Shown: in pieces, positions 1,685 through 14,043 of the stretch
Layout of the letters: each line of letters opens with the position of its first letter
How positions within the stretch are numbered: the first letter of the stretch is position 1
NCBI GenBank assembly: GCA_002721875.1
Contig: PBLU01000014.1
Location: 1 to 14,043, forward strand
DNA from: Chloroflexota bacterium
Lineage (GTDB): Bacteria; Chloroflexota; Dehalococcoidia; UBA1151; TMED-70
Length of the DNA: 14,043 nucleotides
Direction: 5' to 3'
Notes under the pieces: generated by a model
Told to the model about the DNA's origin: nothing
Databases searched by the model: none
What the model saw: only the letters and a program-made list of their open reading frames with translations
Program-made: the position numbers and the translations under genes

Positions 1685-1971
1685 ATATCACACTCAACAT
1701 CTCTAGTTATACTCATGTCGTTCAATCCTTTGACTTCTGATGATATAATTTTGACCCCTGGTTCACTACGCCAGTCTTCACAAAAATCACATAGTTTATT
1801 ATATTCCTCAAGAGCATCATCTACAGCTTTCTTAGCTTTGTAGTCTACATATTTAGGTTCTAACCATAATAAAAACCACACCATAGCCCAACGTAAGGGC
1901 TTAGGTGTAGTATATGCAATGTCTTTGAGTTCCTGTAATAATAACTTGTTAGGGTTAAATAATTTATTCAT
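1681..1971 (-). CDS. Hypothetical 96-residue protein between HNH nuclease and large terminase
   Basis: I do not recognise this protein. It has an N-terminal charged helix-like part, a short Trp-rich hydrophobic patch (RWAMVWFLLWLEP, about residues 27-39) and a helical, mixed-charge segment around residues 40-68 (VDYKAKKAVDDALEEYNKL). The hydrophobic patch is too short to call a membrane span with confidence. Both ends are ATGA overlaps, with the HNH gene before it and the large terminase after it, so it is almost certainly translated as part of the packaging operon. In T7 the genes between small and large terminase are the spanins 18.5/18.7, but nothing here looks like a lipobox or an N-terminal anchor, so a spanin role is not supported. 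A packaging accessory role is a guess from position only. Confidence 0.8.
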   Translation of the reverse strand: MNKLFNPNKLLLQELKDIAYTTPKPLRWAMVWFLLWLEPKYVDYKAKKAVDDALEEYNKLCDFCEDWRSEPGVKIISSEVKGLNDMSITRDVECDI

Positions 1972-2297
1972 TTAATCCAATTTAAAATTAGGTTTTCTCT
2001 AAATGGGTTTGGTGGGAAGTTATCCCTAAACCACGTTAACCAGTTGTCACTTCCTTTTTGTTGATTACATCGTCTACAGGCGGGAACACAGTTGCAAGTA
2101 TTGGTATTACCTCCCATACTTCGGGGATGTACATGGTCAATGGTAAGATCATATTCATGATGTTTTTGTCCGCAATAGATACATTCATAGTTGTTTGCCT
2201 CCTTAATAGCTTTTCTCCATAACCGTTTAGCGTCTGCTGATGTCATGACTATTAAGTTTTGTGTGTAATGTTTATAAGTAGGAAGTACTGGTGTCAT
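1968..2297 (-). CDS. HNH endonuclease in the packaging operon
   Basis: A 109-residue zinc-type HNH nuclease that would nick or cut double-stranded DNA using one metal ion. The motif is complete: CIYC (C39, C42), then TIDHVHPRSMGG (D54, H55, H57), then NCVPACRRCNQQKG (N69, C74, C77, N78). The two CxxC pairs form the structural zinc knuckle and DH/N/N the metal site. It sits between the small and large terminase genes with ATGA overlaps on both sides. HNH proteins beside terminases are known in many tailed phages, and in some HK97-type phages they are needed for packaging; in others they are free-standing homing nucleases. The tight overlaps favour a fixed packaging partner over a recent invader. 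The first 17 residues are less typical, and Met18 (ATG at 2246) is a possible alternative start. Confidence 0.92.
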   Translation of the reverse strand: MTPVLPTYKHYTQNLIVMTSADAKRLWRKAIKEANNYECIYCGQKHHEYDLTIDHVHPRSMGGNTNTCNCVPACRRCNQQKGSDNWLTWFRDNFPPNPFRENLILNWIK

Positions 2298-2816: not shown

Positions 2817-2967
2817 TTTTTAATCCTCGTTTAATAAATTCTACTGCCTTGTCATCAAGGTCATTATCGCTTTCTTTGGATAACTTTTCTAATAAATCAA
2901 CAACAAATAATTTAAATTTGTCACTTTTTAAAAAAGTTAAAACGATTGGTTTTAGTAGTGCTAACAT
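2809..2967 (-). CDS. Hypothetical 52-residue protein upstream of terS
   Basis: A short gene starting at ATG 2967-2965 and ending at TGA 2811-2809. It reads MLALLKPIVLTFLKSDKF at the N-terminus, then FVVDLLEKLSKESDNDLDDK and a short C-terminal helix AVEFIKRGLKIE. The first half is hydrophobic and could be a membrane-associated amphipathic helix; the second half alternates acidic and leucine-rich. I recall similar short proteins near terminase genes of marine T7-like phages but cannot name a function. It overlaps the end of the preceding secreted-protein gene by 47 bases in another frame and terS by 8 bases. Its coding ends carry the terS ribosome binding site. I judge it real because without it about 100 bases would be empty in a region that is otherwise fully packed, and because the protein looks globular and non-random. 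Confidence 0.75.
   Translation of the reverse strand: MLALLKPIVLTFLKSDKFKLFVVDLLEKLSKESDNDLDDKAVEFIKRGLKIE
2824..2828 (-). promoter_or_regulatory. Ribosome binding site for the TTG start of terS
   Basis: GAGGA on the minus strand lies seven bases before TTG 2816-2814. This spacing is what decides the TTG start for the small terminase. The site lies inside the coding end of the upstream 52-residue gene, where it reads as part of KRGLK codons. Confidence 0.6.
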
Positions 2968-3499
2968 TTGGTTTGGGTAATAATGATTGAATAGGTACTA
3001 CGTCTGAGCACATGTGTGCAACACGGGTCTCAGGTCGAAAGGTAAAACCTTTTTGTTGTAGTTCGGCACATTTAAGAGCACGTACCAGCTCATGATCTAA
3101 CCTCATCTTCTCTTCTTGTCTTGCAGCAATTCTTCTGCATTGTTCTAAACCACGTTTATCAAGCGGTATCATAAAATTAACTTGAAAACCCCAGTTCTCA
3201 TTTAACTGATAACTAGATGGGTGTAGTCCATTAAGACCTTCTTTTTCAGAATATGGGTTAACATGGTTTCCCATGTAAAAGGGTGAAAAAGTCATAGTCG
3301 CCCCGTTACATGAAATACCACTGCCATAATTCTGTCTTGACGAAGTTCCATTGTTCTGGAATTGCACTGCTTGGTTAGTCACATTCCCCGTTGCTGCTGC
3401 AACAGGGTTGGAGTGATTTGTAACTTCTGGATCAGTTGCTAAAACAGGACTTATTGTGAGAAGACTGATAAGGATGTAGTAGTAGTATTTATAGTCCAA
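2921..3499 (-). CDS. Exported hypothetical protein, 192 residues, TTG start
   Basis: The open frame continues upstream to 3877, but that part is a Gln/Asn-rich shadow of the neighbouring gene. The real protein most likely starts at TTG 3499-3497, giving MDYKYYYYILISLLTISPVLA, a good Sec signal peptide with a cut near A21/T22. The mature part begins TDPEVTNHSNPVAAATGNV, has four cysteines (C64, C121, C144, C164) that could form two disulfides, and a strongly helical stretch at 112-150 (LEQCRRIAARQEEKMRLDHE). I recall similar conserved proteins in marine phages with no known role. It overlaps the 118-residue exported gene by 49 bases and the 52-residue gene by 47. There is no clear Shine-Dalgarno at the TTG, so translation may depend on coupling. 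It lies where T7 has spanin genes, and a helical periplasmic domain behind a hydrophobic N-terminus would suit that, but there is no lipobox in either partner. Confidence 0.78.
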   Translation of the reverse strand: MDYKYYYYILISLLTISPVLATDPEVTNHSNPVAAATGNVTNQAVQFQNNGTSSRQNYGSGISCNGATMTFSPFYMGNHVNPYSEKEGLNGLHPSSYQLNENWGFQVNFMIPLDKRGLEQCRRIAARQEEKMRLDHELVRALKCAELQQKGFTFRPETRVAHMCSDVVPIQSLLPKPNVSTTKTNRFNFFKK

Positions 3500-3807
3500 T
3501 CTGTTGTTGCGTCTATCTGTTCTACTAACCCAGCAGCTCTTGTTACTACTTCCATATTCCAAGGTTTGGTTACGTCTTTGACGGAAAATGTTGTATCTGC
3601 TGCTGTAATGTTTGAAGAAGGTTCGACATTGCTTCCAGACCAACTTTTTATTGCTGATCCAAAGGTTTGAGTCTTTTTGACTTCTTTTACAGTTTGGGTT
3701 GTTGTTGTTGTACTGTTCATACTCCCCTGAGTAAAGTTGGGGGTTATTGTGTTTGCTCTTGCGACTGCGGGTGCAAGCAGAGCTAAGAGAAGAATCCATT
3801 TCTTCAT
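3451..3807 (-). CDS. Exported hypothetical protein, 118 residues, Thr/Ser-rich
   Basis: The start is ATG 3807-3805, overlapping the previous stop as ATGA; an in-frame ATG at 3852 would add 15 Asn/Lys-rich residues ahead of the signal peptide and is unlikely. The N-terminus MKKWILLLALLAPAVARA is a classical Sec signal peptide with a likely cut after ARA (residue 18). The mature protein is small, without cysteine, rich in Thr and Ser (SMNSTTTTTQTVKEV at 29-43), followed by SAIKSWSGSNVEPSSNITAA and a C-terminus ending SLSVFSQ. It would be periplasmic or in the outer envelope of an infected Gram-negative host. The last 16 codons are read in a second frame as the signal peptide of the next gene. 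I do not recognise the family. Its position beside a candidate holin suggests envelope or lysis work, which is inference. Confidence 0.78.
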   Translation of the reverse strand: MKKWILLLALLAPAVARANTITPNFTQGSMNSTTTTTQTVKEVKKTQTFGSAIKSWSGSNVEPSSNITAADTTFSVKDVTKPWNMEVVTRAAGLVEQIDATTDWTINTTTTSLSVFSQ

Positions 3808-4130
3808 TGTTTTGGTTTTGTTGTTGTTGTTGTTGGTTTTGCCATTGGGCAATTTGGTGGGGTTTTGTTAGCCCCATTTTTTCCAGTTGTCAAGCCAAAT
3901 GTGGCGAGTGCTCCTGTAAATACGCTGGCCACAAAAGTGATATCTGAGTTACCAGATTTTTTTACCATAGGAATATCAACGTAGTTCATTGTAATGATGA
4001 AACCAGACCAGACAACAACGCCTAGTCTGACTACTGTTCCAAGAAATTCTATCTGGTGTTCTTTATCTTCAGCTATATCTTTTACTTTACCTAAGAAACC
4101 TTTGGTTTTGGTTGTCTTATCTTCTTCCAT
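3804..4130 (-). CDS. Two-helix membrane protein, holin candidate
   Basis: From ATG 4130-4128 the protein has 108 residues: a charged cytoplasmic-type N-terminus (MEEDKTTKTKGFLGKVKDIAEDKE), one membrane helix at about 29-48 (FLGTVVRLGVVVWSGFIITM), a short loop with VDIPMVKKSGNSD, a second helix at about 64-81 (ITFVASVFTGALATFGL), and a Thr/Lys/Pro-rich tail TTTTTKPKQ. An upstream in-frame ATG at 4169 would add 13 residues but deepens the overlap with the preceding gene to 79 bases, so I prefer 4130 (40-base overlap). Small size, two helices and charged tail fit a class II holin, and T7 keeps its holin (17.5) between fibre and terminase as here. Similar proteins occur in marine phages as conserved hypotheticals; the holin role is unproven. 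Confidence 0.75.
   Translation of the reverse strand: MEEDKTTKTKGFLGKVKDIAEDKEHQIEFLGTVVRLGVVVWSGFIITMNYVDIPMVKKSGNSDITFVASVFTGALATFGLTTGKNGANKTPPNCPMAKPTTTTTKPKQ
3815..3837 (-). repeat. CAA/ACA microsatellite at a gene junction
   Basis: Minus strand has six CAA-type triplets just before the ATGA junction of the holin candidate and the 118-residue gene. They code for the TTTTT part of the TTTTTKPKQ tail. The stretch is unstructured and A/C-rich, so it may also keep the coupled start accessible in place of a Shine-Dalgarno; that is inference. Confidence 0.6.
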
Positions 4131-4500: not shown

Positions 4501-4941
4501 TTAGCTAGGTTCTGTAGGCCAAGTAATGTTAAAAGGATCGGGTTGAGAAGGTACGTCCCTAAGTGCTTGACGATAATCCCTCCAAGCATCAGATAATGTA
4601 CGATCAGTAGATGCTCTCCAGTCTGTTTTTTCAAGTATAGAGTTTCTTGCTGCTCTTACATTACTCCATTCTAAGTTTGTAATGTAAGCCTGTTCATCTG
4701 AAGTTGTACTGTCAACTCTTACGTTATAAGCCTTATTTTCACTTTGTACATAATAAGGACTTACAGTAGTTAATTTTTGTGTTGGTGTTGTATAATCAAG
4801 AGTTTGTACAAGTTCTACTACATTATTTTCAGTTAAAAAATCTGCATTAGCACCAGCACTAGAAAAGCATGTAGTTGGAAATAATTTTTGTAGTGTACCA
4901 GTGTCTGTAACATTAGTACCATTAATAATTGCGTAATTCAT
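4501..4941 (-). CDS. Tail chaperone-like protein (Phage_tail_APC type), 146 residues
   Basis: The C-terminal part, about residues 91-145, shows the phage tail assembly chaperone pattern: NVRAARNSILEKTDW, then SDAWRDYRQALRDVPSQPD, ending FNITWPTEP. The hallmark residues are R-x-x-R-N-x-x-L-x-x-T-D-W, Y-R-Q-x-L-R-D and W-P-x-x-P. The first 90 residues differ from other members and read MNYAIINGTNVTDTGTLQKL, then a beta-rich part. The gene ends the second fibre cassette, after the LamG-like adhesin. A paralogue with the same C-terminal domain closes the first cassette (6480-6764). Because podoviruses have no long tail tube, I infer that it helps fold or attach the fibre proteins next to it, in the manner of Tfa-type fibre chaperones, rather than a tape measure. 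It could also remain as a virion component. Confidence 0.82.
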   Translation of the reverse strand: MNYAIINGTNVTDTGTLQKLFPTTCFSSAGANADFLTENNVVELVQTLDYTTPTQKLTTVSPYYVQSENKAYNVRVDSTTSDEQAYITNLEWSNVRAARNSILEKTDWRASTDRTLSDAWRDYRQALRDVPSQPDPFNITWPTEPS

Positions 4942-4957
4942 AATTTCATAATATTAA

Positions 4958-5863
4958 TTAGGGTAAGTTGGTGAATCTTGTTTTTGCAATTGCATAGTGA
5001 GTTGCTACATCTGATGCAGTTAAAGCAGTGCCATTATAAATTCTGTGAAGACCTATATTGGCTACCAGTTTATACATTTGTCTACTCCATCCACCACTTA
5101 AACCTGATGGATTAAACGAATAATCAATACTATTTGTTTTTTGACCTAACAGACTGCCATTTCTATAAAATTTCATACCATTTGTACCTGTATTTTCTCT
5201 TGTAACTACAATATGTTCCCAAACATTATAATAAGTTTGATAAAATTCTTGAGGAGTACTTTCGACTGCAAGATAGTTATAATTAGCTAGATTACCACTT
5301 GTTGCATTTCCAGAACCAGATAATCCGTATTCACCTAATACCCATCTATCAATACCGCTAATATTTGTTTTGAAATATCCTAGTGATACATAATAATTAT
5401 GCCACACAAATGTAGGACTAAATGTATAAAAACTTGATTGTTCTTGCCATAAATCCTGTGGAGCAGTACTTACTGAAGGTGGAGGTAAGTAAACTGAATG
5501 AATAAACTCAAGTGCAAAAGGATCAGTTCCAATATTTTGCATTTCAAAATCCAGACGACTTCGTCTACCCATATTAGGGTTATACATATTACCAGCAATC
5601 GGGTATTGAGTTAATTCTAGATAACCACCATATGCTGACTGATAAGTATAACCTGAACTCATATTCATATACCATTGTGCACTGGTGGTATTCTGAGTAC
5701 CATCTTTTATTGATCCGTCAGGATTCAAAGCCCACATATAATTTGGTTGTGAACTATGATTAGGATCCCAAGAATTAGTATCTCCCCAATCGTAGTACCT
5801 CATATTAGTTGTAACAATACCACCTGAGTTACCAGCAGCAGCTCGTAAATTATGCGGTCTCAT
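4958..5863 (-). CDS. LamG/concanavalin-like adhesin of the tail, 301 residues
   Basis: The protein has no signal peptide or membrane segment and is rich in Tyr, Asn, Ser and Gly, like a virion beta protein. The C-terminal half carries a LamG/concanavalin-type jelly roll: NVWEHIVVTRENTGTNGMKF (about 215-234) followed by YRNGSLLGQ, then VANIGLHRIYNGTALTASDV (268-287) and THYAIAKTRF. Those lines match the usual 'W-x-H-I-(V/A)-x-(T/S)-R...F-Y-(R/V)-N-G...G...R-(I/L)-Y-N-x-x-L-(S/T)-x-x-(E/D)-(I/V)' of the family. The N-terminal half (residues 20-130) has aromatic motifs such as NMRYYDWGDTNSWDPNHSS and is not recognised. It begins at a TAATG overlap with the upstream fibre, after a GGAG six codons before the stop, so it is coupled to it. 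Its job is probably to bind host surface glycan at the tip of that fibre. Confidence 0.8.
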   Translation of the reverse strand: MRPHNLRAAAGNSGGIVTTNMRYYDWGDTNSWDPNHSSQPNYMWALNPDGSIKDGTQNTTSAQWYMNMSSGYTYQSAYGGYLELTQYPIAGNMYNPNMGRRSRLDFEMQNIGTDPFALEFIHSVYLPPPSVSTAPQDLWQEQSSFYTFSPTFVWHNYYVSLGYFKTNISGIDRWVLGEYGLSGSGNATSGNLANYNYLAVESTPQEFYQTYYNVWEHIVVTRENTGTNGMKFYRNGSLLGQKTNSIDYSFNPSGLSGGWSRQMYKLVANIGLHRIYNGTALTASDVATHYAIAKTRFTNLP

Positions 5864-6474
5864 TATGCAACATCTCCAACTGTTGCACCGTATAAAGTAC
5901 TAGCTGTTTTCCATAGTTCTATAACTGTATAACCACTTGTAGCTAGAGTAGGTGCTGAACCACCAACCCAAGTTATTGTTGGGAAAGTTAAGGTATAACT
6001 TCCAGCTGAAACCATTAACATCACTGATTGTCCAGCAGACAAACTTTCTGTTGCTGTTCTATTAGCTCCTAATGTCCATTGCTGAATCATTCCATTGTCA
6101 GGATCTAAATCAACACTTGCTCCATCTGTAATGGTGTAAACAGTTTCATTTATTGCATCTTCAAAAGTAACTGAGCCTGTTAATGTACCACCTGTAAGTG
6201 GTAATTTTGTTGCGTCTGTTGTACCTGTTAAAGCGGAACCATCAATAGCTGGTAAAGGATTAGGTACGCTAGCATTTGGAATAGTGCCTGTTAAATTTGC
6301 TGCATTATATGTACTAGGTGCTGGTACATTTGTTAAGTTTGCTCCATCCCCTGTAAAGGATGTAGCTGTTACTCCAGCATCGAAAGTAACATTATTATTA
6401 GCATTAAGTGCTATCGCAGGGTTTGTGTTTGAGCTTGCTGTATGCTCAATTTCCTGCACTCTTATTTTTGACAT
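5863..6474 (-). CDS. Short tail fibre protein B, 203 residues
   Basis: The N-terminus MSKIRVQEIEHTASSNTN and the segment ATSFTGDGANLTNVPAPSTY (about 37-56) are standard for marine phage fibre proteins. The middle contains the repeated type 'AxLTGxIP..LPAIDGSALTG' (58-84). The C-terminal domain (about 104-203), with YTITDGASVDLDPDNGMIQQ, WTLGANRTATESLSAGQSV, and SGYTVIELWKTASTLYGATV, is a compact beta domain I know from many marine phage structural proteins. Residues 37-83 are close to the same region of the 276-residue fibre at 6764-7594, and the DNA shares an ungapped block. It is followed by a TAATG-coupled LamG-like adhesin and then a chaperone-like gene. It probably serves as a connector linking the adhesin to the virion. 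Confidence 0.85.
   Translation of the reverse strand: MSKIRVQEIEHTASSNTNPAIALNANNNVTFDAGVTATSFTGDGANLTNVPAPSTYNAANLTGTIPNASVPNPLPAIDGSALTGTTDATKLPLTGGTLTGSVTFEDAINETVYTITDGASVDLDPDNGMIQQWTLGANRTATESLSAGQSVMLMVSAGSYTLTFPTITWVGGSAPTLATSGYTVIELWKTASTLYGATVGDVA
6227..6365 (-). repeat. Dispersed repeat, copy in fibre B gene
   Basis: This stretch aligns without gaps to 7356-7494 at a constant offset of 1,129 bases, about 85% identical by eye. It codes for the shared part from SFTGDGANLTNVPAPS to AIDGSALT of the two short fibres. Confidence 0.85.
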
Positions 6475-6479
6475 ATTAT

Positions 6480-6764
6480 TTAATTAGGTTTTGTTGGATA
6501 AGTAATATTATCTACATCAGTTTGTGTGGCTGGTAAATCTCTTAATTCTTGACGATAGGTTTTCCATTCATCACTTAATGCAACTCCTGTATCAGATGCT
6601 TTTGTAACTACCCAATCTGTGTCTAACAATAAACGATTTCTTTTATTCCTTACCTGTAACCATTTAATTTCGGTTTCTGATGGTGCAGCAGCTTTTCTAG
6701 TTTCTAAATCTTTTAATTCATCAGATGTAAGTGGTACAACGACTCCGTTTACTAACTTATTCAT
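6480..6764 (-). CDS. Tail chaperone-like protein, 94 residues, paralogue of the 4501-4941 gene
   Basis: Nearly the whole protein is the chaperone-type domain: WLQVRNKRNRLLLDTDWVV (about 35-53), LSDEWKTYRQELRDLPATQ (63-81) and the ending NITYPTKPN. The N-terminus MNKLVNGVVVPLTSDELKDL is common in such fibre-adjacent proteins. Compared with its paralogue it lacks the ~80-residue leading part. It starts at a TAATG overlap with the fibre upstream and has the strongest Shine-Dalgarno in the window. That fits a chaperone made in quantity alongside its fibre. I infer it acts on the 276-residue fibre; the family name 'tail assembly chaperone' was given from long-tailed phages and the tape-measure role should not be assumed here. 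Confidence 0.82.
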   Translation of the reverse strand: MNKLVNGVVVPLTSDELKDLETRKAAAPSETEIKWLQVRNKRNRLLLDTDWVVTKASDTGVALSDEWKTYRQELRDLPATQTDVDNITYPTKPN

Positions 6765-7594
6765 TATGCCTCCTTATATTTGTAAAGTAAAATTTTTGTA
6801 TCAGTTGTAAAACTCCATCCTTGTGGACTAAACAGTCTAAATCCATTGGCTTTAGCGTGTGTAGCAGTTTGATTAGGGTCATTATTTGTATTATTTGTGT
6901 AGTTTTCCTTACCACCCCAAAAAGATACAAATCCATAAACTGTATTAGGATTTATAAATTTTGCTAATACATAAGGTCGAGAACCTGTATAAAAATCAAT
7001 TGAACCTCCATGTTTAGATGAATGGTAGCCATCCATATCAAATGTCCAATAACTGGCACTATGCTGATTTCCTGAACTATTGCTTTCATTAACAAAATTT
7101 CCAAAAAAATTACTATAATCAGTCATTGTTGTAGCATTATCTAAAAATACTTTCATACCCATAACAGTATTGCTGTTAAAATTAGCTTCTGGAATTATTA
7201 TTTTGTAGAGAGTATCATATTCAAGCCCTGTTTTATCTATTTCAGTTACAGTGCTAGGTGGTTCTATTTTTTGTACAAACTCAAACGCACCACCACCTGC
7301 ATTAGTCAAGAGGTTGGCTGGTATAGCACCAGTTAAGTTTGCTGATGTTAAAGAAGTTAAAGCTGAACCGTCAATAGCTGGTAAAGGGTTAGGTAAACTA
7401 GCATTTGGAATAGTGCCTGTAAGATTTGCTGCATCAAATGTACTTGGTGCTGGAACGTTAGTTAAGTTTGCCCCAGATCCTGTAAAAGTTGTAGCATTGC
7501 AATCACCATTTATAGTTGCACCAGTACTTGTAAGACCTATAGTTGAAGTTGCGTGTTGTGTAGATTGTATAGTATCTACTTTTATTTTTGACAT
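6764..7594 (-). CDS. Tail fibre protein A, 276 residues
   Basis: The first ~100 residues resemble those of the 203-residue fibre: MSKIKVDTIQSTQHAT, then ATTFTGSGANLTNVPAPSTF (about 34-53), TIPNASLPNPLPAIDGSALT (63-82), and a further SANLTGAIPANLL repeat. The C-terminal ~170 residues are different and beta-rich, with YKIIIPEANFNSNTVMGMKV, then SASYWTFDMDGYHSSKHGG, YVLAKFINPNTVYGFVSFWG and a final GFRLFSPQGWSFTTDTKILL. That layout resembles small beta-sandwich domains of marine phage fibres, but I cannot name the fold. It starts 12 bases after the main fibre gene and is joined to the chaperone-like gene by TAATG. Shared N-terminus with a different C-terminus is the usual sign of host-range module exchange: a common docking part with an exchangeable tip. 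Confidence 0.84.
   Translation of the reverse strand: MSKIKVDTIQSTQHATSTIGLTSTGATINGDCNATTFTGSGANLTNVPAPSTFDAANLTGTIPNASLPNPLPAIDGSALTSLTSANLTGAIPANLLTNAGGGAFEFVQKIEPPSTVTEIDKTGLEYDTLYKIIIPEANFNSNTVMGMKVFLDNATTMTDYSNFFGNFVNESNSSGNQHSASYWTFDMDGYHSSKHGGSIDFYTGSRPYVLAKFINPNTVYGFVSFWGGKENYTNNTNNDPNQTATHAKANGFRLFSPQGWSFTTDTKILLYKYKEA
6769..6775 (-). promoter_or_regulatory. Strong Shine-Dalgarno before the 94-residue chaperone-like gene
   Basis: Minus-strand AAGGAGG lies four bases before ATG 6764-6762 (AAGGAGGCATAATG). It is the only full-strength site I found among the starts in this window, and it works across a TAATG stop-start junction. Confidence 0.7.
7356..7494 (-). repeat. Dispersed repeat, copy in fibre A gene
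   Basis: Partner of 6227-6365. The longest exact stretches are around gcatttggaatagtgcctgt and caatagctggtaaagg on the plus strand. The rest of the two genes, especially downstream, is not alike. Confidence 0.85.
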
Positions 7595-7606
7595 AATTTT
7601 AAATTG

Positions 7607-10138
7607 TTAAACAAAAGCCATAGTTGAACCAGCAACTATAGTTACGGTGACTCCAGATGCAACTGTTAATGGAGAAGCAGATACATAGTTTTTATTTGTT
7701 GTAGTTGTAAAATTATTATTTACTTCATTTTCTGCTTCAACAAATAATTGCTCGTTTCCACCTCCTACTAAACCAGAACTTTGATCGACCCATGCATAGT
7801 CTGTTCCATTCCAAGACATAACTTGGTTAGAATTAGCAGTGCTTTGATTTAAATGTGTATTAACGTCAGAGTCTGTATATCCTGCATTATCTACCCACGC
7901 ATAATCCGAACCATTCCAACTAAGTACATAACCTGCTGTAGGATTACTTTGATTTAAATGTGTATCAACACTGTTATCACTATAAAGTTGGTTTTGTGCT
8001 GTAACACCACCTTGCCAAGAAGAACCGTTATAAATTTTTAACTCGTTAGCAGTAGTGTTAAAGAATAAATCTCCTGTATCTAGATTAGTAGTTGGGTTAG
8101 TAGCACCTGAACTATATCTAGCTGCAAAGTCATTAACAGTACCAATATTACTTGCAACTGTATTTACGTTTGTTATCGAATTACCAACATTATTTACGTT
8201 GGTTATATTACCAGCAGTAGTATTTACGTTTGATATGCTTCCAGCAACTATTCCTATATTGTCATCAATAACTGATATGGAATTACCCATACTATTACCG
8301 TGTTGAGTACAGTAATATATCAGCGAGTTTGGTGCAGTTGATGGTACAGCAAAAATTACTGAAGATCCAGCTTGACCTGCTGTTCCATTTACTGTTACAC
8401 CTGTGGTATATGAAGCATTACTACTATCTCTAAATGCTAGTGGATGGTTATTGTTAGTACTATCAGATTGGTCAAATGTGTATGTATACCCTCTAGTTAA
8501 AGTTAAAGGAGGGTTAGCTGCACCATTTATATAAAAAACACCACCAGATACAGTTACAGTATATGTCTGTGCAGTCCCTAAAGAATTAGCTACAGCATTT
8601 ATATTTACAAGGTTTGAACTAACAGTGTTTACGTTAGCAATGTCATTTGCAACAGCATTTACGTTGGCAATATCACTTGCTGTTGTACTTATATCAGAAG
8701 CGTTAGTATTAGCTGTATTTATAGCTGATATGTTGCTTGCTACAGTTGTAACTTCTGTTGCCTTCGGTACTAATCTATGAAAGCTATATGTATGTAATGT
8801 GGTAGTTGTTTCTACTAGAAATCCAAAGTCTTGAGGTATAGCACTTGTTACTCCTGTAATTGTAACTGTATTACCAGTTCCAGCACCATTAGTAATAGTT
8901 ACTGTAGTTCCGCTTGGAGTTAAAGTAGTTGATGCTGTTTTAACAGAGACAATAGTGCCAGTACCGTTGTTTGCATCTGGGTTTGCTGTAGGAAAACTTG
9001 TTTCGTTTGCTATCGGTACAAAACCACCGACATCATCAATTAAATCAATAATCCTGTCATTAATAGCTGCTGTTGTAGCAATAGTTGTATCGTTGTCTGG
9101 AAATGCATCACCATCTTTAATAGTGTCTCCAGAAGATATATTGAAATATCTAGCATCCGCAGCCGATTGAGTAAAGTATCTACTATCAAGAACACCATCA
9201 GTTGCTAGTTCTGTTTCTGTGTAGTATCTACCATCAAGAGAACCACCTGATGTAAGCTCTGTTTCTGTAAAATACCTTGTATCAAGTTGTCCAGCATTAA
9301 GCTCAGTTTCTGTGTAGTATCTATTATCTAACTGACCTGCATCTAATTCTGTTTCTGTGTAATATTTACTATCAAGTACACCACCAGAGGTAAGTTCAGT
9401 TTCTGTATAATATCTATTATCTAATTGTCCAGAATCTAATTCAGTTTCTGTATAGTATCTACCATCAAATGTACCAGTTGGTATATTATTAGCATCTACT
9501 GAAATATCACTAGGAAGTGTACCACTACCTAATTTATCTAAAGTTACAGAATCATTAGCTAATTTAGAACCTTGTATATTTGCACTTGCGTTTATATCAG
9601 CATCAAGAATAGAACCATCTACTATTTTTTCTGATGTAACAAAATTAGATGTTATAGCACCTCCATTAAACAGTGCTCCTTCTATTTCTAATGCTTTGTT
9701 TCTAGCATCTTGTGCTGTAAAATTAGATTCAGTAGATGAATTGTTAAGGTCAGTAGCTCTAATTGTACTGCCACTAGCAAATGTAGTATATGTACCGTCT
9801 GCATCTCTTGTTCTACGTTCACAAAAAACTACTGCACCTTGCGGTAGTGCAGAGTTAAATGTAATGGTGTTGTTATCGCTGGAAAGTTGGTAGTTATATA
9901 AAGTTGTACCCGCAGATACTGCAGGAAAGTATAATCCATCTGTGTTGTTCACCTGTGGGTGAGTAGATTGTGCAGTACTACCAGTAGACTGGCGTAGCTG
10001 TAGCACTCTAGTACCACCCGATAATGTGACATAAACATCTAAATCATCTTGGTTATTCAGTTGTATGCTGACTGGCGTAAATGCAGTTGTAGTTGCATTA
10101 GACGTAGCAGCGAAAGTTTTTTTAGTTGTAACTGCCAT
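7607..10138 (-). CDS. Main tail fibre (T7 gp17-like N-terminus) with cupredoxin-like insert
   Basis: Residues 1 to about 155 form a T7 tail-fibre docking domain (start MAVTTKKTFAATSNATTTAF, later GAVVFCERRTRDADGTY and ALEIEGALFNGG). Residues ~226-332 are seven repeats of type RYYTETELxxGxLD. Residues ~466-520 and 631-672 are runs of ANVNAVANDI-type repeats, as in trimeric fibre shafts. Between them, ~524-625, lies a cupredoxin-like domain: H565 (NNNHPLAF), then YYCTQHGNSMGN with C610, H613 and M617. Two copies of a WNGxDYAWVD module follow (723-785). The end, SPLTVASGVTVTIVAGSTMA, is a common marine fibre C-terminus. It directly follows the internal core gene, as gp17 follows gp16 in T7. There is no clear Shine-Dalgarno. 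The protein should form the side fibres that attach to the tail and touch the host. Confidence 0.93.
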   Translation of the reverse strand: MAVTTKKTFAATSNATTTAFTPVSIQLNNQDDLDVYVTLSGGTRVLQLRQSTGSTAQSTHPQVNNTDGLYFPAVSAGTTLYNYQLSSDNNTITFNSALPQGAVVFCERRTRDADGTYTTFASGSTIRATDLNNSSTESNFTAQDARNKALEIEGALFNGGAITSNFVTSEKIVDGSILDADINASANIQGSKLANDSVTLDKLGSGTLPSDISVDANNIPTGTFDGRYYTETELDSGQLDNRYYTETELTSGGVLDSKYYTETELDAGQLDNRYYTETELNAGQLDTRYFTETELTSGGSLDGRYYTETELATDGVLDSRYFTQSAADARYFNISSGDTIKDGDAFPDNDTTIATTAAINDRIIDLIDDVGGFVPIANETSFPTANPDANNGTGTIVSVKTASTTLTPSGTTVTITNGAGTGNTVTITGVTSAIPQDFGFLVETTTTLHTYSFHRLVPKATEVTTVASNISAINTANTNASDISTTASDIANVNAVANDIANVNTVSSNLVNINAVANSLGTAQTYTVTVSGGVFYINGAANPPLTLTRGYTYTFDQSDSTNNNHPLAFRDSSNASYTTGVTVNGTAGQAGSSVIFAVPSTAPNSLIYYCTQHGNSMGNSISVIDDNIGIVAGSISNVNTTAGNITNVNNVGNSITNVNTVASNIGTVNDFAARYSSGATNPTTNLDTGDLFFNTTANELKIYNGSSWQGGVTAQNQLYSDNSVDTHLNQSNPTAGYVLSWNGSDYAWVDNAGYTDSDVNTHLNQSTANSNQVMSWNGTDYAWVDQSSGLVGGGNEQLFVEAENEVNNNFTTTTNKNYVSASPLTVASGVTVTIVAGSTMAFV
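7784..7972 (-). repeat. Two tandem HLNQS...WNGxDYAWVD modules near the fibre C-terminus
   Basis: Residues ~723-750 (VDTHLNQSNPTAGYVLSWNG then SDYAWVD) and 757-785 (VNTHLNQSTANSNQVMSWNG then TDYAWVD) are close copies. The module is frequent in marine phage fibres. Confidence 0.88.
8123..8248 (-). repeat. Coding repeats of NVNTVASNI type, second run
   Basis: Residues ~631-672 resume the same repeat (SISNVNTTAGNITNVNNVGN, ITNVNTVASNIGTVND) after the cupredoxin-like domain. The two runs look like a single shaft segment split by the insert. Confidence 0.85.
8579..8743 (-). repeat. Coding repeats of SDIANVNAVAND type, first run
   Basis: Residues ~466-520 of the main fibre repeat a motif of about ten residues, (A/S)(S/N)(D/N)I(A/S)xVNxVA, for example ANVNAVANDI and ANVNTVSSNL. 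This kind of run is typical of phage fibre shafts. It ends where the cupredoxin-like domain begins. Confidence 0.85.
9143..9463 (-). repeat. Coding tandem repeats RYYTETELxxGxLD in the main fibre
   Basis: Six clear copies plus one degenerate copy (RYFTQSAADARYF), alternating between 15 and 16 residues per unit, so 45 or 48 bases. The units differ at wobble positions and in the linker (DSGQLD, TSGGVLD, DAGQLD, NAGQLD, TSGGSLD, ATDGVLD). Such repeats usually build an elongated trimeric shaft. Confidence 0.9.
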
Positions 10139-10158: not shown

Positions 10159-13100
10159 TTAATACCCGACTTTTCTCATTTCTTCGATTTCTGCGTTAAT
10201 GTCATCGACTGAGTATCCAGGTTCGTTTTCTAAGTTAGATTTTATTTCTTTCACATTTATTCTAAATTGTAAAGACTTAGGATCTTTAATATTACCAAAT
10301 TTAGTATCTGGGCTTAACATCATGTCCATTGCTCTTTGTTTTGCATCCATCATGACGTTATCTACCATTTGATAAAATATTGCATTTTTATAATCATACC
10401 CACCTACTTCATCTCCAGATATACCAAACCTACCAGACTTAGAAAATAAACCTTTGTCTACTTTTCTGTTGTCAGCTCTGTATTGTGCTAACGATTCTTT
10501 AAATGGTTTGCTTTCAATTACATTAAGTAGTTCCTTACGTAAATGAGGATCCATAGCTAATAGTCTTTGAAACTCAGATTGCTCTGGGCCAGTAAGTTCT
10601 TCTCCTTTATATGATGTCATATTTGCATTAAGATCATATCTAATATCTAGTAAAGCATCAGTAATAGGATCTTGTTTTTCAAAATCTATACCAATAGGAG
10701 ATATAGTTGAGAACAATCTTAAGAAGAAATTATCTGGTAATCTTCTTAGTTTTTTAGCTTCTCTTTTTTCATTAAACACATCATATCGTTGTGGTAAAGC
10801 AGCTCTAAGAACAGAAGTTCTATACATTAACTTTTCGTTTAGACTTTCTAATTCTTTCATACTACCATCTACAAGATCATTTATATCAGCAAATTGACCA
10901 GTAAAAGGTGCAAAAGAACCTAGCACGTTAGCTCCACTAGATGTAATCATATCATTTGGTTTTTCTGCTTGAAATATGTTAGCAAAATCTGTAAGACCTT
11001 GTAATGGGCCATTATCAACTAACAATGTACCAGCAATAAATGATAGTTTTGAAAGAGCATAGCTTACCTCTGATTCTCCAAGTATATCTCCTTCATGAAT
11101 AAGATTAGCAATCACTCTAGCAAACGTAGTCCATATCTCTGCTCCAGAAAAACCTACATATAAATCTTGATCTGTGTATGGTACTTTAAATCTAAAAGAT
11201 AAGGGCTTGATTCCTGCTTGTTGCCACATTTCTCTATCGCCTGGATCTCTTGGATAGTCACCTACAATACGACCAGTTGCTGCTAATCTTGCCATATATG
11301 CTATAACACCAGTACCAAATGCCATCTTACCTTCCATTTCTGCTATTTCACCTGGAAGTGTACGGGAAGTTATACCATATTTTTGTAATTCAACCATATC
11401 ACCTCTTAACATAGCGTGATATTTTTTGTTAGTTACAGCAGCAGCATAACTATGATCCCATGCTATTTTTAGACCATTAATAGCAGGAGTTAAGAATTTA
11501 AAAAAGATTGAAGAACCTGGAATTTGCCCTAAAAGTTTAGTATATGCTTTTTCTATACCTTCTAAATTTCTAGTAAGTGTAGCTTCATCTCCACCTAATC
11601 TAGCTAGTTTATCTGAAACAATTTTATGTTTAATTTTAGTGCCATTTTCTAGAGTTTCTTCTTTATATCTAAATATTTTTGACTCAAATAATTCTTCGTA
11701 CTTATCTCTAAACTTTACAAAATCTTCAACACTTGCACCAGACTCCATAGCTTCATGAAATGACTCTGACGCTAATCGTTGCATACCAATATTATACCTT
11801 GCTGCAGCATCACCAGCTCCCATAGCAAGAGTAGAGTGCCTTACAAAAGGGTTAGTATTAAAGTTTTCTAGGTGTTTAGCTGCTGCATAACCCATGTCAG
11901 TTAGTTTATCATCAGTATACTTATTTTTAAAATATGCTAAATCTTTAAACTGTTCTGTTCTTCTTTCTATGGCATACTTACCAACGTAATCCATATCTTT
12001 CTTTTTAAAACCTAACTTATAGTTACGTAAAAAGACTTTTAAAGTATCACCCATAGATTTAGTAGCATTATCTAATTCAAATAATGCTGATAATGTTTCT
12101 CTTTGTAAAAACTCTGCATCTTTAAAATCTGGATATAATGCTTTATATCCTTTAGAGCTTAGAAAACCTGCATCTATTTGAGATCTAGATATACTTAATG
12201 GATTTAAAAATCCTAATCCTTTCATTATTCCTTTGTAATAAGCAAGAAAACCAGTATTTACTATAGCTTTGACAGGAGTTCTTACTCTACCTAAAAGAGC
12301 ATTAAAAGAAACACCCATAATTTCTTGCATCACCTTAGAGGGCATAGCTTTAAATCTTTGTCCTGCAGCTCCTGTGTACCCTAAAAAATTACCACCGTAA
12401 AGGTATGATCTTAAATAAGTACCTATATCATCTAAAGATAAAACATCACCATCTGTCATAGCAAAGATACGCATTAGATCTTTTATACCTGTTTCATCAC
12501 CTGTTTCTCTTGCAACTTTTTTTAAGGCTTTCATATTTTCTTTCAATATTTCTCCATCCCTAACAGCTTCAGCAAAAGAAGAACCTCGTTTACCTGATTG
12601 TAACGTATCTAATACTTTAATATTACCTTGTTGCATTAGTCCATCAGTACCCCAAGCATACATATACTCTTTGGTTTTAATAAACACTTCTTTCATAAGA
12701 TCAGTCAATTTATCATAGTTTTGATAAACTGTCAGACCATTCGACATTTCCAATGCACCTGTAGATAAATCAGAAATAGTTTTAGCTATAGATTTTAGTA
12801 TAATCATATTAGCATCTTTTTCCAAAGGGCCAATAGTTTCTAAATACCTAGGTTGACCTGTTTCTGGATCTTTACCATATGAGAATGTTCTATACTCATC
12901 ACTACCTTTTTTACCTTTTCTTAAAGCAGTAATACGTTTTTTATATTCATTTAAAATACTCTTAACATCACCTTTGGTAAAGTCAGCTATCTTGTGTAAG
13001 AAAGGTTCAGCTCTGTCTACAGCATATTTAGCAAGTCGTTCATAATCTTCAGACTTATATGTTTTAGACACCTTTTTTGTAAAGTCGTCCATAACTTCTC

Positions 13101-14043
13101 TGAATATCTTGGCTAGGTTTTCATCCCCTCCAGATACCCTTTGAATCATGTTCTTAGTAACTTGTTCTGCATTATGTACAGGTGTGTTAGCTTCCTTATA
13201 AATATCAGCTTCATCAAACAATTTAGTTGATACTTCCTCAGTTTTCTTTGCATTGTCTGCCATATCATCTATAGCATTAACATCTTTAGCATAACTAACC
13301 TTTTCAAAATCATCAAACTGTTCTGGATTGACGGTAGGATCTGGTTGTCTACCTGCATTTTCAGAATCTAAAGATGTACTAGAATATCTCTTATCATTCC
13401 AATTATCACCAACACTAGCACCCTGATTTTTAGCTTTTTGAGTTAACTCTTCAATAGTTGCCTTTGCATCTATTCTAGTATCAATGTTACCAGATGTTGT
13501 TTCTTGTATGACATTATCATAGGTAAGTAAATCTTCTTCACTTAAATGTCTACGTACATACTTTTCTAGAGGATCCATAGGGTCTATACCCTTACCAGAT
13601 GCTAATTTAACTACAGACAACTTTTGTGCAGCTCTTTCAGCATTGATAACTTCTTCAAGCATGGCACGTCTAAATGCTTTAGCACCTTCTTTGTTACCAA
13701 TATCAACTGCTTCTTGAATAGATTTACCATTTTTTAATGCTTCTCTAGCTGTTGATCTTGCAGTTTTAAAACCACCTCTAATCAAAGCACTAAAGAAATA
13801 ACCAATATGATTAAGACCAGCTCCCATTGTTACAGTCTTAAGTCTAGCTTCCCATGCAGTATCATCTTCATCTACAGCTAATCTTTCCATAATTCCAGGT
13901 AGTAACCAAGGAGTATGTTCTTGAGCTAAGTTAGCAATATTAGCATATTCTGATGATTCAGATATAAGTTCTGCTAAACCACCCTCTGCAGTAATTTTCA
14001 TACCTGTTGTTAAAAACTGCATAGGTCTATTAGTAGCAACAAA
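10159..14043 (-). CDS. Large internal virion (ejection core) protein, T7 gp16 position, 5' end outside window
   Basis: The frame is open to the window edge: seven codons (FVATNRP) precede the first Met at 14022, so about 1,294 C-terminal residues are visible. The protein is almost all helical and charged, with few predicted membrane segments, as expected of the T7 ejection proteins that leave the capsid and form a conduit across the host envelope. Recognisable blocks of marine T7-like core proteins include AAKHLENFNTNPFVRHSTLA, then AINGLKIAWDHSYAAAV, YPRDPGDREMWQQAGIKPLS (about 921-940) and FRLQFRINV-like C-terminal text ending IEEMRKVGY. T7 gp16 is 1,318 residues and carries a lytic transglycosylase at its extreme N-terminus; that part would lie outside this window, so its presence cannot be judged. 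Its direct neighbour is the gp17-type fibre, matching T7 order. A different large core protein (gp15 type) is less likely from size and position. Confidence 0.83.
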   Translation of the reverse strand, partial: FVATNRPMQFLTTGMKITAEGGLAELISESSEYANIANLAQEHTPWLLPGIMERLAVDEDDTAWEARLKTVTMGAGLNHIGYFFSALIRGGFKTARSTAREALKNGKSIQEAVDIGNKEGAKAFRRAMLEEVINAERAAQKLSVVKLASGKGIDPMDPLEKYVRRHLSEEDLLTYDNVIQETTSGNIDTRIDAKATIEELTQKAKNQGASVGDNWNDKRYSSTSLDSENAGRQPDPTVNPEQFDDFEKVSYAKDVNAIDDMADNAKKTEEVSTKLFDEADIYKEANTPVHNAEQVTKNMIQRVSGGDENLAKIFREVMDDFTKKVSKTYKSEDYERLAKYAVDRAEPFLHKIADFTKGDVKSILNEYKKRITALRKGKKGSDEYRTFSYGKDPETGQPRYLETIGPLEKDANMIILKSIAKTISDLSTGALEMSNGLTVYQNYDKLTDLMKEVFIKTKEYMYAWGTDGLMQQGNIKVLDTLQSGKRGSSFAEAVRDGEILKENMKALKKVARETGDETGIKDLMRIFAMTDGDVLSLDDIGTYLRSYLYGGNFLGYTGAAGQRFKAMPSKVMQEIMGVSFNALLGRVRTPVKAIVNTGFLAYYKGIMKGLGFLNPLSISRSQIDAGFLSSKGYKALYPDFKDAEFLQRETLSALFELDNATKSMGDTLKVFLRNYKLGFKKKDMDYVGKYAIERRTEQFKDLAYFKNKYTDDKLTDMGYAAAKHLENFNTNPFVRHSTLAMGAGDAAARYNIGMQRLASESFHEAMESGASVEDFVKFRDKYEELFESKIFRYKEETLENGTKIKHKIVSDKLARLGGDEATLTRNLEGIEKAYTKLLGQIPGSSIFFKFLTPAINGLKIAWDHSYAAAVTNKKYHAMLRGDMVELQKYGITSRTLPGEIAEMEGKMAFGTGVIAYMARLAATGRIVGDYPRDPGDREMWQQAGIKPLSFRFKVPYTDQDLYVGFSGAEIWTTFARVIANLIHEGDILGESEVSYALSKLSFIAGTLLVDNGPLQGLTDFANIFQAEKPNDMITSSGANVLGSFAPFTGQFADINDLVDGSMKELESLNEKLMYRTSVLRAALPQRYDVFNEKREAKKLRRLPDNFFLRLFSTISPIGIDFEKQDPITDALLDIRYDLNANMTSYKGEELTGPEQSEFQRLLAMDPHLRKELLNVIESKPFKESLAQYRADNRKVDKGLFSKSGRFGISGDEVGGYDYKNAIFYQMVDNVMMDAKQRAMDMMLSPDTKFGNIKDPKSLQFRINVKEIKSNLENEPGYSVDDINAEIEEMRKVGY

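What the first reader, a model, noticed from the sequence alone, without database searches (positions are those of the whole stretch)
8264..8569. A cupredoxin-like domain with a full type-1 copper ligand set inside a phage tail fibre
Residues ~524-625 of the main fibre read as a beta-sandwich with N-terminal YTVTVSGGVFYINGA, a middle GYTYTFDQSDSTNNNHPLAF and an end YYCTQHGNSMGN. H565, C610, H613 and M617 correspond to the His, Cys, His, Met set of blue copper proteins; C-x2-H matches plastocyanin, while the Met is four residues after the His (five in plastocyanin). The domain sits between two runs of the same shaft repeat, as if inserted. I recall related YYCTxH...M segments in other marine phage structural proteins, but know of no proven function. 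Copper binding, use of copper for host contact, or a structural relic are all open.
Basis: partly seen in the sequence, partly recalled or inferred. Interest (0 to 1): 0.72.

Follow-up and report, generated by a model that had tools for sequence, protein, structure and literature searches.

The report
Blue-copper domain in marine phage fibre
The tail fibre of this marine virus carries, partway along its shaft, a domain predicted to fold like the blue copper proteins of photosynthesis and holding the complete set of copper-binding residues, and relatives of it occur in tail proteins of many ocean viruses, so virus particles may carry copper, which has yet to be measured.

The parts
7607..10138 (-). 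Main tail fibre, 843 aa, carrying the domain
   Evidence: PHROG 21412 tail fiber protein E 2.6e-83; Pfam Phage_T7_tail 24.2 bits, just under its cut-off of 25.2
8267..8569 (-). Cupredoxin-fold domain, residues 524-624
   Evidence: profile match; AlphaFold2 pLDDT 92.7, pTM 0.85 for residues 515-630; Foldseek and VIA-align matches
8444..8446 (-). H565, first His ligand, just before a strand
   Evidence: H in 253 of 258 distinct copies
8309..8311 (-). C610, Cys ligand, last residue of strand 91-96 of the model
   Evidence: C in 255 of 258
8300..8302 (-). H613, second His ligand, in the turn before the last strand
   Evidence: H in 254 of 258
8288..8290 (-). M617, presumed axial Met ligand, fourth residue of the last strand by DSSP
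   Evidence: M in 252 of 258
8570..8776 (-). Shaft repeat before the domain (residues 455-523)
   Evidence: predicted helical with low confidence
8111..8266 (-). Shaft repeat after the domain (residues 625-676)
   Evidence: predicted partly helical with low confidence
9659..10138 (-). N-terminal attachment region (residues 1-160), used to collect fibres with and without the domain

Best explanation
The domain is a type-1 copper (cupredoxin) bead carried in line on the fibre shaft and exchanged as a module among marine phage tail proteins and giant proteins of marine bacteria. Shown by computation: the predicted fold, the order, position and conservation of His-Cys-His-Met, the optional plug-in presence, and the profile link to recognised copper proteins. 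Inferred: the domain folds empty in the host cytoplasm and takes up copper after lysis, from the lysate or seawater, so that the metal held by the loops stabilises the bead. With trimeric fibres this gives three sites per fibre, about 18 per T7-like particle (fibre number recalled). Least certain: the loaded bead serves as an extracellular contact surface along the shaft for host or particle surfaces, not as the specific receptor-binding tip, because it sits mid-shaft and the same module occurs in proteins annotated as baseplate-fibre connectors and other structural parts of different phages.
Against: No metal data and no visible spectrum. Foldseek E-values are only about 1e-3 and TM-scores about 0.5, and metal-free or unrelated sandwiches (peptidylarginine deiminase, SO1698 and others) also rank in its first 50. 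The 50 VIA rows are few distinct proteins, and the laccase part matched (residues about 37-187) is the first domain, which as I recall does not hold the blue copper; so these rows support the fold more than the site. By sequence alone antibody chains outrank plastocyanin. The domain stays below the Pfam Copper-bind cut-off. The residue after the first His is Pro, not the Asn of plastocyanin. Ligand-less relatives exist in genome assemblies and cyanophage giant proteins, so the family is also used without the site. A role in host contact has no direct support.
Confidence: 0.62

Rival explanations
1. The Cys-His-His-Met site is a metal staple but the metal in the particle is not copper (for example zinc taken up in the cytoplasm during assembly); its job is only to hold the loops together.
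For: The fibre is made in the cytoplasm, where free copper is held very low (established knowledge). The site is mostly kept or lost as a unit. Positions in differently annotated structural proteins suit a generic stability role.
Against: Met as fourth ligand and the cupredoxin order are hallmarks of copper sites; the nearest sequence relatives found are recognised copper proteins.
Confidence: 0.2
2. Trojan copper: the loaded site docks the phage to host copper-handling surface proteins, as proposed for iron sites in other phage tail fibres.
For: The iron version of the idea is in print for tail fibres with HxH sites (PMC11705849, PMC12753301, passages read). The site would lie on an exposed part of the virion (inference).
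Against: The domain is mid-shaft, not at the tip, and absent from 46 of 72 closed fibres with the same N-terminus. It occurs in phages named for hosts as different as cyanobacteria, Pelagibacter and Methylophilales, so it is not a host-specific key.
Confidence: 0.13
3. A redox or light trigger: the blue-copper centre senses redox state or light and makes adsorption light-dependent.
For: P-HM2, whose fitted dark adsorption may be effectively zero, has 5 matches (at least one without ligands), while P-SSP7, for which constant adsorption could not be rejected, has none.
Against: S-PM2, which I recall as light-dependent, has only one weak match, and that copy lacks the ligands; it has no match to the bridge family or PF00127 either. 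P-HM2 and P-SSP7 differ in much else (a large phage annotated T4-like against an Autographiviridae member).
Confidence: 0.03
4. A structural relic: a cupredoxin fold kept as a spacer whose ligands no longer matter.
For: Ligand-less copies that keep the family signature exist (L107, L113, L115, L116, L118, L122, L124 and cyanophage giant proteins).
Against: Those copies suggest that the fold does not need the ligands, yet in the family as collected they are near-invariant at a mean pairwise identity of 46%.
Confidence: 0.04

Closest known systems
Plastocyanin / pseudoazurin / amicyanin family (Pfam PF00127 Copper-bind)
   Same: Cupredoxin fold, His-Cys-His-Met in the same order, Cys-x2-His, Cys, His and Met grouped before and at the last strand; profile relation directly and through the bridge family
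   Different: A bead inside a viral fibre, not a free electron carrier; first His followed by Pro, not Asn; Met is 4 residues (39 of 78) or 3 residues (33 of 78) after His instead of 5 (1 of 78 further away, 5 of 78 without the motif); below the Pfam cut-off
Secreted or arrayed HPFY-type cupredoxins of marine bacteria (L301, L305; over the PF00127 cut-off)
   Same: His-Pro, YYxC-x2-H...GM-x-GTI end, hhalign 97.9% over 97 columns
   Different: Free-standing small protein or part of a longer bacterial protein; no fibre shaft
Rusticyanin and AcoP
   Same: Single-domain proteins among the first Foldseek matches
   Different: About 15-21% identity, TM about 0.5; electron carriers of iron oxidisers (recalled)
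Metal sites in phage tail fibres: HxH iron sites of T4 gp37 and the predicted ones of alterophage R22Y (PMC11705849, passages read)
   Same: Metal held, or predicted to be held, by a phage tail fibre
   Different: Octahedral iron held by His-x-His motifs of a trimer; here one chain would hold one site in a separate domain
PHROG 13518, 21412, 30742 and 677 (tail fibre, baseplate wedge tail fibre connector and unknown)
   Same: Match this fibre
   Different: No copper domain is named in their descriptions

Membership tests
Type-1 copper proteins (cupredoxins) | Greek-key beta-sandwich of about eight strands | tested here: met
   Nine strands of 3 or more residues, pLDDT 92.7; fold matches to cupredoxins. 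A predicted, not a solved, structure
Type-1 copper proteins (cupredoxins) | His just before a mid-sheet strand; Cys at the end of the penultimate strand; His and Met just after, before or at the last strand | tested here: met
   H565 = model residue 51, strand 53-57 follows; C610 = 96, end of strand 91-96; H613 = 99 in the turn; M617 = 103, within strand 100-110 by DSSP
Type-1 copper proteins (cupredoxins) | Ligands conserved in homologues | tested here: met
   250 of 258 distinct copies complete; 250 of 263 if five ligand-less gapped copies are added
Type-1 copper proteins (cupredoxins) | Four side chains converge on one point | not testable with these tools
   No coordinates are returned by the prediction tool
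Type-1 copper proteins (cupredoxins) | Binds copper, S(Cys)-Cu band near 600 nm | not testable with these tools
   Needs purified protein
Pfam PF00127 Copper-bind (plastocyanin/azurin) | Score over the curated cut-off | tested here: not met
   Window domain: not listed at E up to 1; 6 of 62 family members listed, best E 0.048
Pfam PF00127 Copper-bind (plastocyanin/azurin) | Relation by profile comparison | tested here: met
   85.4% directly, 97.9% and 97.9% through a three-row bridge family
Phage tail fibre (T7 type, PF03906) | N-terminal attachment domain | tested here: inconclusive
   24.2 bits against a cut-off of 25.2; PHROG tail fiber protein E 2.6e-83

The most novel reading that the evidence does not exclude
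Particles of many abundant ocean phages carry ordered blue-copper sites on their tails, acquired after lysis, and use the copper-loaded beads to attach to host copper-handling surfaces; phage particles would then be a copper-binding fraction of seawater.
Probability: 0.17. Interest if true: 0.88.

Novelty: new variant of a known kind. Interest (0 to 1): 0.7.

Why it matters
Cupredoxins are known as free or membrane-bound electron carriers and as parts of copper enzymes. A conserved, modular cupredoxin with intact ligands inside phage fibres, with relatives in records named as cyanophages, Pelagibacter phages and Methylophilales phages, is not described in the papers I could search. If copper is bound, it adds a second metal to the debate on metals in marine phage tails, gives a coloured spectroscopic handle on native virions, and makes the question of what metal sites do in phage adsorption directly testable with existing isolates (Baldr, S-TIM5, P-HM2, P-SSM2).

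Tried and rejected
Sequence search of the domain against PDB gave antibody chains first and a plastocyanin at E 0.84. Family profiles put plastocyanin at E 0.067 and 0.094, with antibody and other chains above it. Sequence against solved structures alone does not prove the relation.

Pfam and NCBIfam gave the domain alignments no match that I would take as a family: for PF00127 the best of 62 members is E 0.048, for the NCBIfam plastocyanin model 2 of 62 members, best E 0.012. A sub-threshold hit to PF25489 (At5g54830-like; window E 0.0052, 5 of 62 members, best 0.0016) was not followed.

Light-triggered adsorption was tested on named phages and set aside: S-PM2 has no ligand-bearing match.

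No plasmid of 72,556 records matches. No RNA family at gathering threshold and no tRNA in the window.

The shaft-domain-shaft model is of low confidence in the shaft (pLDDT 40-54 per block of ten) and shows only that the domain folds again between helices.

Virion proteomics of cyanophages (PMC3037559, passages read): the passages shown do not name the domain-bearing proteins; supplements could not be opened. So that these proteins are in the virion rests on annotation names.

Rows dropped before the 258: duplicates, and 8 rows with a gap at a ligand column. Read afterwards, five of the 8 are ligand-less copies from genome contigs (L118 twice, L122 twice, L124) and three are fragments (L054, L068, L162). 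Broken copies are not all independent: L107 and L115 are near-identical, L118 and L122 come from one contig.

Papers: one search's one paper (PMC9605863), one search's 20 listed of 21 and one search's 10 listed of 154 were seen as listings only.

Full report
What is there. The window is part of a 17,540-base virus record. The minus-strand ORF 7607-10138 is an 843-aa tail fibre, next to an internal virion protein gene (10159-14022), with smaller fibre-like genes and the terminase further along. The domain spans residues 524-624 and contains one Cys.

Distribution. By tblastn, 348 of 50,697 phage records hold a match at E up to 0.01, 537 places in all. By first word of the name they are Synechococcus (251), Cyanophage (59), Prochlorococcus (25), Methylophilales (4), Marine (3), Pelagibacter (3) and three others; I did not check the source of each record. 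In 60 rows taken evenly down that ranking, 37 lie under a baseplate wedge tail fibre connector name, 4 under other baseplate names, 3 under tail fibre, 5 under virion or structural protein, 9 under hypothetical protein and 2 in records without annotation. The protein database gave 519 matches, the window's own protein among them (best 120 listed). In bacterial and archaeal genome assemblies there were 45 loci, some of which may be phage contigs. Nine of these genomes were searched whole: in five of them (two labelled by their loci as Prochlorococcus or Bacteroidetes, three as SAR86) copies lie in open frames of about 2,000 to 5,500 codons. Of 101 genomes of the genus of one Prochlorococcus, 11 match at 1e-6; five of these match only in frames of 139-164 codons, which I did not read one by one. 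No plasmid of 72,556 matches.

Ligands. I collected 352 domain rows from 201 loci and 120 proteins, the window included. After removal of duplicates and gapped rows, 258 distinct copies have a letter at all four positions, and 250 of them have His, Cys, His, Met. At under 70% identity there are 78 copies: H 74, C 76, H 75, M 73. Among the 98 well-filled columns the four rank within the first 11; the median column is 58% conserved and the mean pairwise identity is 46%. To avoid selecting on the ligands, I counted apart the loci found with seed patterns that hold no ligand: 82 of 82 distinct viral copies (new loci) and 42 of 49 genome-contig copies are complete; with the five gapped ligand-less copies the latter is 42 of 54. 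Both codons are used at each His and at Cys. Of the eight broken copies in the 258, four have lost three or four ligands and four have lost one; the five gapped ones have lost two or more. More distant cyanophage giant proteins also have ligand-less copies. So the family can persist without the site, and its retention elsewhere points to selection on the site itself. The broken copies named by locus come from genome assemblies or named cyanophages, one (P0027) from a protein of unlisted origin.

Sequence link. Directly, profile comparison with eight plastocyanin/pseudoazurin-like proteins taken from the same bacterial genomes gives 85.4%. A bridge family of three domains with HPFY or HPLY, two of them over the PF00127 cut-off, gives 97.9% with the phage family over 97 columns and 97.9% with the classical family. 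It matches solved plastocyanins at E 9.2e-6. The Pelagibacter phage Baldr copy is hit by both profiles. The bridge alignment has only three rows and hhalign values are for single comparisons, so these figures are rough.

Module. Of 80 viral fibres with a related N-terminus plus the window, 72 have a closed frame; 26 of them (window included) carry one copy and 46 none; the nine open ones carry none in what is held. L223 and L226 align on both sides of the domain and have shaft repeats without it; L235 and L252 have a different stretch there. A wider model again folds the domain (pLDDT 85-90 in its blocks) between low-confidence helices. In other proteins the neighbours include collagen-like repeats, other shaft repeats or a second copy.

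What it most likely does. Fold, order of the site and modularity are supported computationally. Copper is inferred from the ligand set and kinship. Loading after lysis follows from low free copper in the cytoplasm (established knowledge). The use as a stabilised contact bead is the least certain step. Zinc or another metal as a mere staple is the main rival.

Light test. P-HM2, with fitted dark adsorption that may be zero (PMC7112961, passages read), has five matches and P-SSP7 none, but S-PM2 has only a ligand-less one, so the copper site does not explain light-dependent adsorption in general.

Literature. Searches for cupredoxin with phage and tail fiber (0 papers), with bacteriophage and virion (0), with cyanophage (1, not read) and mixed terms (listings) showed no description; the library lacks most subscription papers. 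Related metal proposals exist for iron (PMC11705849 and PMC12753301, passages read).

Noticed in passing
window 5863-6474 and 6764-7594 (-): Two fibre-like genes share an 88-column N-terminal stretch with 61% identity, followed by different C-terminal parts, as if one attachment end had been copied onto different tips.
   Followed up: partly
window 4501-4941 and 6480-6764 (-): 4501-4941 matches Phage_tail_APC (E 1.2e-14); 6480-6764 looks like a second copy by eye (shared YRQ-x-LRD and C-terminal pattern), so different fibres may have their own chaperones.
   Followed up: no
window 1968-2297 (-): HNH endonuclease near the terminase large subunit.
   Followed up: no
window 2921-3877 and 3451-3852 (-): Two ORFs overlap in different frames on the same strand, the shorter one with a secretion-signal-like start by eye; possibly a lysis gene pair.
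   Followed up: no
L107, L115, L113 (first copy), L116, L118, L122, L124: Copies in genome assemblies in which most or all of the four ligands are gone together while the family signature stays.
   Followed up: partly
L342 (P-HM2) gene gp7, record 46318-59682: A 13.4 kb gene annotated as baseplate wedge subunit with two domain copies, one of them without ligands.
   Followed up: partly
alignment A2 against Pfam PF25489: Sub-threshold match of 5 of 62 members to the plant At5g54830-like domain (best E 0.0016); may mark a eukaryotic relative.
   Followed up: no
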